Below the pieces are notes generated by a model. It saw nothing but the letters and a program-made list of their open reading frames with translations. It did no database searches and was not told where the DNA came from. 64,000 nucleotides of DNA from Luscinia megarhynchos (taxonomy: Eukaryota > Chordata > Aves > Passeriformes > Turdidae). Position numbers and translations under genes: made by a program. The stretch spans positions 15,417,056-15,481,055 of the forward strand of contig JAPFBE010000013.1 of the NCBI GenBank assembly GCA_034336665.1, written 5' to 3'. Of this stretch, positions 8,701 to 11,700 are shown piece by piece (position 1 is the stretch's first letter; each line of letters begins with the position of its first letter).

Positions 8701-11700
8701 GGCAGTGATTCCTTATCTCCGTGGCACATATTATCTGCTAATGGGCCATCTTTAAAACCAGGTGGGCCAATCACCTTTATCTTTTCCACAACCCATCCTC
8801 CCTCCAGGAAGATATCATCTGCTATTAATGGGCCATTGAGCCCCACTGTATGACTGATAAAATTACATCATCCCACTGGGAGATGCTACAGCCAGGGGGA
8901 GGAACCAAGTCTTTCCTACCTAGATAAAAAACAGATTTGGAACATCAAAGCAGTCTTTTTTTCCCACTGGATTCCAGAGGAAAACCAGGCCTTTCCCTGG
9001 ACCTTCACAGAGGAAAACTGCACCCTTCTACAGGAGCACTGCTTCAGCTGAACCACATCTGCCACTGCAGGGGGACTGCAGCCACCATTTAATGGGACTG
9101 CTACCAACACCCTGACTGACAGGGTGTCAGGTTGTATTCTGACTCTGTCAGTGTTTTTGGGGTTGTTCTTTGTAATACTGTATTTCCATTTTAATTTTCC
9201 TAGTAAAGAATGGTTATCCCTAATTCCCATATCTTTGTCTGAGAGCCCCTTAATTTCAAAATTATAATAATTTGAAGGGAGGGGGTTTACATTCTCCATT
9301 TCAAAGAGAAGCTCCTGCCTTTCTTAGCAGACACCTGTCTTTCCAACTGAGACAGGAGGCTTCTGGGAACAAAATTAGCTCGATGGAGGGGATAAAACTC
9401 ACCTGCTTCCTGCTTTTGGCCCCAACCTGTTATCCAGCACTTGTCCCCGCGGCGGGCTTTGTGGGAGGAGGGGGGCAGGCAGATGGGCTGGATGAGGTGG
9501 CCCATGGTGTCTGGCCAGGGCGTGCTCAGCTGCAGCAGCGCGATGTCGTAGTCGTAGTTCCTGCTGTTGTAGTACTCGTGCACTATGATCCGCCTCAGCC
9601 CCTGACACAAACTTGGCACGGCCTTGCATTTGCATGCCCAGGTGGGCACGCCATGCTCTGGGGTCAGACAGCCTGGGTGGGAGCAAACCAAGAAGGAGTT
9701 TCCTAAAAAAGCACCACAAAACACCCGCTGACAGCAGGGCTGGGGAAAGGGGAGCACAGCACCTCCATGCAGCTCAACTCTGGAACCTAAAGGCACTTGT
9801 GGATTCTGGCCACGTTTGGGACAGATATAGAGAGAAGACTGCTCACTTGCTCCCTTGAAAGCAGTGGGCTGCAGACACAAGCCATTCTTTCGATATCACA
9901 GATGCTCCACAGTAAGCAGCTCCCACAAAATGAAGGCTGACCTGCCAGGGCCATTCACCTTCCTCAGTGTTTGAGCCACCTACAATCCGAGAGATCAGCT
10001 TGCTGATCTTGCTGCTGCCACAACCTGCAAGAGATATTTCAGGTTATAATCCTCATCTCCAGTAATGGGGATTCTCCATTTCCATTAATTTCCTTTTCCT
10101 TTAACGAGGAGGATTCCCACATATGGCATGAAAGAATACTGCACTTGAAATATTTTGAAAACGCAAAACTTCTCTCTTTGGCTACTCTATTAATGAAACA
10201 AGAGGTAACGCCATAGAAAGGCATAAGTCTTGAAATTTTACTAAGTCCTTTTTCTAGCTCTGCTGCAGAAATTACCCCTAAATATTTATTGTGCCAGAAA
10301 TGTCAAAGGATCCATTGATTTAATAAGCATCACAATGAATACATACAAACAGGCAAACCCTCCTCTCTTTTTTGGTACTGCCAACCCTGACCTGAAAGGA
10401 GACCATCAACAAAGAAGTTCAATATCATAAGAACACTTACTTCTTGCCAAAACAGTGGAAATGATATAAGAAAAATGTAGGTAGAGATTGGACATTTATT
10501 TGAGAAACAAGGTGATACAATCATTATTTTGTATGGAAATGACAGTCTGACAATGTATATTACTAATATGTAAAAAGTCACAAAAACGGAACTCTTAATT
10601 TGAAAAGCAAGGCAGAAATACACTTCTGTAGAGACTCCTGTCCATCCCTAGTGCTTGCACATAAAGTTCTGCTCAGGAGTTTTAGTCCCACACACAGGTG
10701 TTAATATTTCTGGACCCTCTCCAGAAAGTTGAATGCATCCTTAATGCTTCCAGATAAAAATAGACATATGGCCAGTCTCTTAAAACATCCTACTGAATCC
10801 AAAGGCAAGTACTGACAGGTTTGACATACAGGCAGCACACCAGAGACAGCTGAGGGCCAGGCAAAATCAGAAAATGGTTTGGTTTGGAAAGGGAACTTAA
10901 AGATCACCTAGTTGCAATCCCCACCATGGGCAGGGCCACCTTCCTGCTAAACCAGGTTACTCAGAGTTCTGTCCAGCCTGGCCTTGAACAATTCCAGGGA
11001 TGAGGTATTGATAACTTCTCTGGGCAGCCTCTGCCAGGGCCTCACCACCCTCACAGGGAAGAATTTCTTCCTTCCACCTGATCTAAAGCTACCCTTTTTT
11101 ATTATAGAGCCATTCCTCCTTGTTCTATCATTAGAGAGAAAAGACCCTCTCTAGCCCTCCTGTTGGCCCCTTTATGACTGGAAGGTGCTAAGGGCCTTCT
11201 TCCCAAAGCTGTGTTTTCTCCAGGCTAAACAACCCCAGCTCTCTCAGCCTGCCTCCATAGGAGAGGTGCTCCAGCCCACAGATATCTTCACAAACCTCCT
11301 TTGGACTCGTTCCAACACATGCAAGTCATGTAATACACTTGAAACCATTCAGTTTAAGCAACTAATCCTAACTCCTCTTTTATTACTACTGCAGTGACAA
11401 TCATCTGTTTGCTTTACAGCAAAACAAACTGAAAAGGTTGTACAGAGGTTACTTCAGGAAGATTTAAGACTAGAACCTAACTTGATACTATGAAGTATTG
11501 GGAGTCAGAGAAGTGAAGTTCAGGGCTTTTTTTTCTCATTGCAGCTGTATCACTCCTGAAGTCCAAATACAGTCCAACTTCAACAAAGTGCCTGGCACTG
11601 CTGCAGACAACAAAGTTCCTGCCTCACCAACTAACCAAGTTCACTGTGTAATTAACCCTGCTGCCCTAATCCTTAGCATAGTTGCAATAAGTAGTTGAGC

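What the first reader, a model, noticed from the sequence alone, without database searches (positions are those of the whole stretch)
9595..9606. Single-base frameshift in the protease domain of TMPRSS7
Seen: exon 16 reads GRAKFVS in one frame and GLRRIIVHEYYN in the next, joined at a run of four G (9599-9602 on the minus strand). All other junctions of the 18-exon model are in phase, and the exon is 270 nt where 269 fits. The shifted reading ends at TGA in the second codon of exon 17, giving about 724 residues with His628 but without the true catalytic Asp and Ser. The stop lies about 130 nt before the last junction, so nonsense-mediated decay is expected. Either this bird has lost an active matriptase-3, or the base is a polymorphism or an assembly error.
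Basis: partly seen in the sequence, partly recalled or inferred. Interest (0 to 1): 0.75.

Follow-up and report, generated by a model that had tools for sequence, protein, structure and literature searches.

The report
One-base frameshift in bird TMPRSS7
A songbird's copy of a cell-surface protease gene carries one extra DNA letter that would break the enzyme, but the rest of the gene is intact, so this is most likely a sequencing error or a very recent mutation rather than a long-lost gene.

Summary
Minus-strand TMPRSS7 (matriptase-3) has 18 exons; every junction is GT-AG and in phase except exon 16 (9672-9403), which has 270 nt where 269 fits. As read, the frame ends at TGA in the second codon of exon 17, 133 nt before the last junction: about 724-726 residues with the catalytic His but no Asp or Ser. 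It is the orthologue (TAGLN3 beside it, introns kept), next to Leucopsar in an 18-protein tree (weak support). One correction: all 26 listed bird rows read V where the window would read L, so a single extra C at 9598 explains the site better than a fourth G. No other lesion was found. After the break no private substitution was counted in 166 codons, and exons 17-18 match Leucopsar at 102 of 102 residues, so an old loss is unlikely. Exon 16 is the G+C peak of the window (62%), and 5 of 9 short bird models fail in it; false indels in G+C-rich exons of bird assemblies are documented. Best reading: consensus error (about 0.5), then segregating allele or recent fixed loss. No reads or bird DNA could be reached, so error and real allele are not separated. 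Interest is low.

The parts
37835..37885 (-). TMPRSS7 exon 1 (MDEKNDPPTAKPEDE[VS])
   Evidence: tblastn with Hirundo model P0027, 100% over 17 aa; two possible donors (sequence)
33185..33377 (-). exon 2, transmembrane segment
32339..32469 (-). exon 3, SEA domain start
29977..30044 (-). exon 4
28794..28987 (-). exon 5
27926..27964 (-). exon 6
24150..24378 (-). exon 7
22735..22865 (-). exon 8 (end corrected to the gtaggt donor)
21415..21527 (-). exon 9, CUB
19732..19838 (-). exon 10, CUB
15110..15246 (-). exon 11, CUB
13867..13974 (-). exon 12, LDL-receptor class A repeat
13180..13290 (-). exon 13, LDL-receptor class A-like repeat
   Evidence: repeat read by eye, not separately scored
11921..12037 (-). 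exon 14, LDL-receptor class A-like repeat
   Evidence: repeat read by eye, not separately scored
9847..10024 (-). exon 15, activation site RIVGG and catalytic His
9403..9672 (-). exon 16, 270 nt where 269 fits; catalytic Asp lies after the break
9593..9605 (-). frameshift site TCAGGGGCTGAGG; extra base most economically the C at 9598
7817..7953 (-). exon 17; TGA of the shifted frame in its second codon
5563..5733 (-). exon 18, catalytic Ser (GDSGGP) and normal stop
8624..9355 (.). repeat element in intron 16, separated from exon 16 by 47 nt; 87% like 35103-35832

Best explanation
The window holds the orthologous TMPRSS7 gene of a songbird, intact but for one very recent or spurious single-base insertion in exon 16, most economically a C at 9598 after the GGGG run. 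Most likely it is a consensus or assembly error in the most G+C-rich exon of the region; the real gene would then encode a normal type II transmembrane serine protease of about 825-827 residues. Shown: the frameshift in the given sequence, the intact remainder, no sign of decay after the break, the G+C peak. Inferred: that the base is an error rather than a true allele.
For: Single lesion in an 18-exon gene with splice sites and phases otherwise intact. The read-through protease domain matches the whole Pfam Trypsin profile (1-220 of 220, E 3e-65) and Leucopsar on both sides of the break. After the break, 0 counted private substitutions in 166 codons against 14 in 642 before (Fisher p = 0.087); exons 17-18 differ from Leucopsar at 0 of 102 residues. 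26 of 26 bird rows read V in frame. No protein with the shifted tail was found. Exon 16 is 62% G+C; only 2 of 6373 windows of its size, both overlapping it, reach that. Of nine bird TMPRSS7 rows in the short-model alignment, five lose or replace part of exon 16 (Cyanoderma, Strigops, canary, Zosterops, Ficedula). PMC9516821 (passages read) reports false insertions in a G+C-rich exon of zebra finch PCDH17; PMC8081667 (passages read) says short indels giving frameshifts were the commonest errors before polishing of long-read contigs.
Against: If the extra base is a C rather than a G it is not a homopolymer-length error, the usual kind in long-read consensus (general knowledge). The other coding stretches of the window that tblastn found (TAGLN3 exons, some exons of the downstream protease gene, not modelled in full) show no obvious frameshift, so errors are not frequent here. 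The window branch is longer than that of Leucopsar (0.025 against 0.016; 13-19 against 8-11 private changes over seven outgroups, p 0.14-0.68), and the window has 3 changes at otherwise invariant sites (one of them the break itself) where Leucopsar has 0, though other songbird rows have 1-6: a non-significant hint of relaxed constraint. The short models are selected for being short, and two more (Buteo, Bambusicola) are disturbed at the exon 15/16 junction, so the failures may reflect model building around a short intron rather than bad sequence.
Confidence: 0.5

Rival explanations
1. A real loss-of-function allele that segregates in the species: the sequenced bird carries one or two copies of a frameshift that removes the protease by nonsense-mediated decay, while most birds of the species have an intact gene.
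For: One lesion only, no sign of decay after it, in-frame in the nearest relative and all other bird rows with the column; stop 133 nt before the last junction fits mRNA decay.
Against: Nothing here distinguishes it from an error; no reads or population data.
Confidence: 0.23
2. A recently fixed loss of matriptase-3 in this species or its close kin: the protease is gone and the gene is a young unitary pseudogene.
For: The insertion is in the sequence; the window carries more private amino-acid changes than Leucopsar (14 against 9 before the break), including H222Q and D228G at sites otherwise invariant in the 18-row set.
Against: Excess not significant; no second lesion; no counted private change after the break in 166 codons; in frame in Leucopsar, the neighbouring row.
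Confidence: 0.2
3. A real insertion whose effect is bypassed by alternative splicing, giving an altered but in-frame protein.
For: 49 of 226 donor-acceptor pairs around exons 15-16 restore the frame without a stop, and 22 GT..AG introns inside exon 16 span the break with a fitting length.
Against: The best of the 49 pairs keep 123, and the best of the 22 internal introns 126, of the 148 native codons of exons 15-16; the loss lies beside the catalytic His. An intron of one base is not possible (general knowledge).
Confidence: 0.05
4. The copy is a duplicate or retrocopy, not the functional gene.
For: None.
Against: Introns kept, TAGLN3 upstream and a second protease gene downstream, as in fused Cervus and Hirundo models; exon 16 is single copy in the window. 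The rest of the genome could not be searched.
Confidence: 0.02

Closest known systems
TMPRSS7 (matriptase-3) of birds, e.g. Leucopsar rothschildi P0001
   Same: Same domain order, 96% identity over 810 residues, in frame on both sides of the break.
   Different: The window has one extra base in exon 16 and, as read, no catalytic Asp or Ser.
False frameshifts in G+C-rich exons of bird assemblies (PCDH17 of zebra finch, PMC9516821; passages read)
   Same: Short false insertions in a G+C-rich coding exon of a bird gene.
   Different: There a newer assembly of the same individual exposed the error, and the exon was 5'-proximal; here no second assembly or reads were available and the exon is near the 3' end.
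Young unitary pseudogenes with a single frameshift (general knowledge)
   Same: One disabling indel with premature stop and expected mRNA decay.
   Different: No second lesion, no significant relaxation, not shown in another individual or species.

Membership tests
TMPRSS7 orthologue | Transmembrane segment, SEA, CUB, LDL-receptor class A repeats, trypsin domain in this order | tested here: met
   Pfam: SEA, CUB (2 stretches), Ldl_recept_a (2 stretches passing), Trypsin; transmembrane segment read from the sequence
TMPRSS7 orthologue | Neighbourhood with TAGLN3 | tested here: met
   TAGLN3 exons between 63139 and 53794 on the same strand; a Cervus model fuses the two genes
TMPRSS7 orthologue | Highest similarity to TMPRSS7 rather than other proteases | tested here: met
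   96% to Leucopsar TMPRSS7; nearly all top rows are named TMPRSS7; best solved relatives are matriptase and TMPRSS6
Active trypsin-like protease | His, Asp and Ser of the triad in one reading frame | tested here: not met
   As read only His is kept; Asp and Ser lie after the break
Unitary pseudogene | At least one disabling lesion | tested here: met
   Frameshift and premature TGA in the given sequence
Unitary pseudogene | Relaxed constraint or further decay | tested here: inconclusive
   13-19 against 8-11 private changes over seven outgroups, p 0.14-0.68; none counted after the break in 166 codons
Unitary pseudogene | Lesion fixed in the species and confirmed by reads | not testable with these tools
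   No reads; the search of the own genome did not complete
Target of nonsense-mediated decay | Stop more than about 50-55 nt before the last exon junction (general rule, recalled) | tested here: met
   133 nt; decay itself not tested
Assembly error in a G+C-rich exon | Locally extreme base composition | tested here: met
   Exon 16 is the G+C peak of the window
Assembly error in a G+C-rich exon | Raw reads contradict the consensus | not testable with these tools
   No reads available

The most novel reading that the evidence does not exclude
This songbird lineage has very recently fixed the loss of matriptase-3 through one inserted base in an exon that is a local G+C hot spot, and the same exon is prone to breakage in several songbirds, as the canary, Zosterops and Ficedula models hint.
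Probability: 0.1. Interest if true: 0.45.

Novelty: new member of a known kind. Interest (0 to 1): 0.15.

Why it matters
If real and fixed, it would be a natural knock-out of a poorly understood conserved protease and a test of what matriptase-3 does. If an error, it is one more case of a false gene loss in a G+C-rich bird exon and a caution for gene-loss scans.

Tried and rejected
Rejected: retrocopy or decayed duplicate (introns and neighbours kept). Rejected: rescue by splicing that keeps the whole domain. A first version of the splice enumeration used a wrong codon phase and gave 0 hits; it is void and replaced. DNA folding of 9540-9660 showed nothing unusual (z 0.10), so no hairpin explanation. 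Exon 16 amino-acid composition (GARP against FYMINK) is high in all 18 rows, 0.50-0.84, turtle and alligator included, so it does not show a songbird-specific G+C burst.

Literature: searches for TMPRSS7 or matriptase-3 (20 of 76 listed), TMPRSS with birds, pseudogenes and gene loss (10 of 11 listed) and TMPRSS7 with avian (10 of 10 listed) listed no paper whose title or abstract start reports a TMPRSS7 loss in birds; the papers were not opened for that. Listings were used to look for assembly errors and base composition. Passages read: PMC9796300 (starling assembly; polished with linked reads, nothing on this gene among the passages), PMC10231145 (Tmprss7 among proteases expressed in chicken embryo tissues), PMC4161349, PMC9516821, PMC8081667.

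Limits: a positive control for (would a shifted tail be found if present?) was not run. The collection is clustered at 90% identity, so members behind a representative are not seen, and searches scored only the 7998 and 7945 candidates sharing most words. No DNA of other birds was reached, so codons and synonymous rates of relatives could not be compared, and the preference for an extra C rests on protein columns and parsimony.

Full report
Observation. The minus strand of the window carries TMPRSS7 in 18 exons from 37885 to 5563. I located exons 2-18 by their splice edges and reading frame and exon 1 by tblastn with the Hirundo model. The introns as drawn are GT-AG. Joined (with exon 8 ending at 22735), the frame is open from exon 2 through exon 15 and into exon 16. 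Exon 16 (9672-9403) is 270 nt; 269 nt would join exon 17 in the frame of the known protein. The break is at TCAGGGGCTGAGG, 9593-9605, with the four G at 9599-9602 and the C at 9598. As read, the protein has 709 residues from exon 2 plus 15-17 from exon 1 and ends at TGA in the second codon of exon 17, 133 nt before the last junction.

What gene. A search of about 5.8 billion proteins (7998 candidates scored) returned 131 at E up to 0.001, 120 listed; the top ones are TMPRSS7 of birds, led by Leucopsar rothschildi at 96%. TAGLN3 exons lie upstream on the same strand (63139-62957, 62104-61910, 57487-57383 and within 53979-53794), and exons of another protease gene lie downstream (3419-3237, 2608-2444, 656-441, 375-307). 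A tree of 18 proteins places the window beside Leucopsar with support 86/84, below the tool's star, within a songbird group of seven at 100/100. No result names the species; the shared residues suggest a relative of starlings (inference). It is probably not Ficedula albicollis, whose model has N where the window has K at residue 568.

Which base. In 116 of 120 listed proteins the column after the break could be read: V 63, I 37, L 16; all 26 bird rows (several are isoforms of one species) have V, and so do the six bird fragments that keep the column. The window would have L if one G were extra, which needs an added GTG to CTG change; it would have the usual V (GGG GTG, matching the residues GV of Leucopsar) if the C at 9598 were extra, which needs nothing else. 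L does occur at this column in other vertebrates, so it is not excluded. The single C is the more economical reading. It is inference, since no bird DNA was available.

How old. If the break were old, the sequence after it should decay. Counting changes that Leucopsar and at least one of five other songbirds do not share, the window has 15: 14 in 642 codons before the break and, after it, only V644L, which is the break itself; so 0 in 166 codons. Leucopsar has 9 and 1. Residue 692 (R in the window, H in Leucopsar, S in the five) is counted for neither by this rule; Cyanoderma and Zosterops also have R there. Fisher p for the window is 0.087, and this part of the protein is conserved anyway, so the test is weak, but it gives no sign of decay. 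Exons 17-18 differ from Leucopsar at 0 of 102 residues; other songbird pairs differ at 0-4. Against this, the window has more private changes overall than Leucopsar (13-19 against 8-11 over seven outgroups), p 0.14-0.68, and three at sites otherwise invariant in the 18-row set (H222Q, D228G and the break's own V644L) where Leucopsar has none; the other five songbirds have 1-6. Four isoform or near-duplicate rows (P0007, P0013, P0016, P0022) of the 22-row alignment were left out of these counts.

Setting. Exon 16 has 62% G+C against 36-52% in the other 17 exons; only 2 of 6373 windows of 270 nt, both overlapping it, reach that value; third-position G+C after the break is 0.86, against 0.61 before it in exon 16, 0.49 in exons 2-15 and 0.31-0.32 in exons 17-18. 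A repeat 87% like 35103-35832 lies 47 nt beyond its end. In the search with the protease domain alone (90 proteins at E up to 1e-60 among 7945 scored) I aligned nine bird rows named or matching TMPRSS7. Five lose or replace part of exon 16: canary and Zosterops lack the stretch that spans the break, Cyanoderma lacks five residues at its start, Strigops (a parrot) has other residues at its start, Ficedula jumps from exon 15 to the next gene. Two more (Buteo, Bambusicola) are disturbed at the exon 15/16 junction but keep the stretch, and the two Geospiza rows keep exon 16 and fail later. So the trouble is not confined to songbirds, the rows are short by selection, and whether they reflect gaps, errors, model building or real indels is unknown. 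PMC9516821 (passages read) describes false insertions in a G+C-rich exon of zebra finch PCDH17 covered by false 1-2 bp introns; PMC8081667 (passages read) names short indels as the commonest errors before polishing.

Could splicing rescue it. Among 226 donor-acceptor pairs around exons 15-16, 76 restore the frame and 49 of these have no stop. The best of the 49 keep 123 of the 148 native codons of the two exons; the best of 22 introns inside exon 16 keep 126. With the normal donor the nearest acceptor lies 61 nt inside exon 16 and removes the stretch after the catalytic His. Rescue of a normal protease is unlikely.

Function. [quoted passage not shown] Tmprss7 is expressed in chicken embryo tissues (PMC10231145, passages read). 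If the break is real, the transcript should be decayed and any protein made would lack Asp and Ser and be inactive (inference from known rules).

Verdict. The feature is real in the given text; its biology is not settled. My weights: error 0.5, segregating allele 0.23, recent fixed loss 0.2, splice bypass 0.05, duplicate 0.02. These are judgements, not computed. The case is ordinary in kind, and read mapping would settle it.

Noticed in passing
9403-9672: Exon 16 is the most G+C-rich stretch of its size in the window (62%; third-position G+C 0.86 after the break), far above exons 17-18 (0.31-0.32): an exon-sized peak that may mark local biased gene conversion.
   Followed up: partly
P0121, P0123, P0125, P0128, P0154 (proteins): Gene models of Cyanoderma, Strigops, canary, Zosterops and Ficedula lose or replace part or all of TMPRSS7 exon 16.
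   Followed up: partly
375-307, 656-441, 2608-2444, 3419-3237: Exons of a second transmembrane serine protease gene directly downstream on the same strand; in Hirundo, Lonchura and Ficedula models it is fused to TMPRSS7. The chimeric Ficedula model P0154 is closest to matriptase among solved structures.
   Followed up: partly
8624-9355 and 35103-35832: A repeat of about 730 nt, 87% identical between intron 16 and intron 1, with a shorter match at 17015-17119.
   Followed up: partly
50313-50502: Tandem array of 38 copies of TATTC, 99% matches.
   Followed up: no
Nothoprocta P0009, exon 16 part: GARP share 0.84 against 0.41 in the rest of the protein, the highest of 18 rows; ostrich 0.68.
   Followed up: no
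P0010: A duck TMPRSS7 protein is labelled Transgelin 3 in UniRef, perhaps because the two neighbouring genes were merged or misnamed.
   Followed up: no
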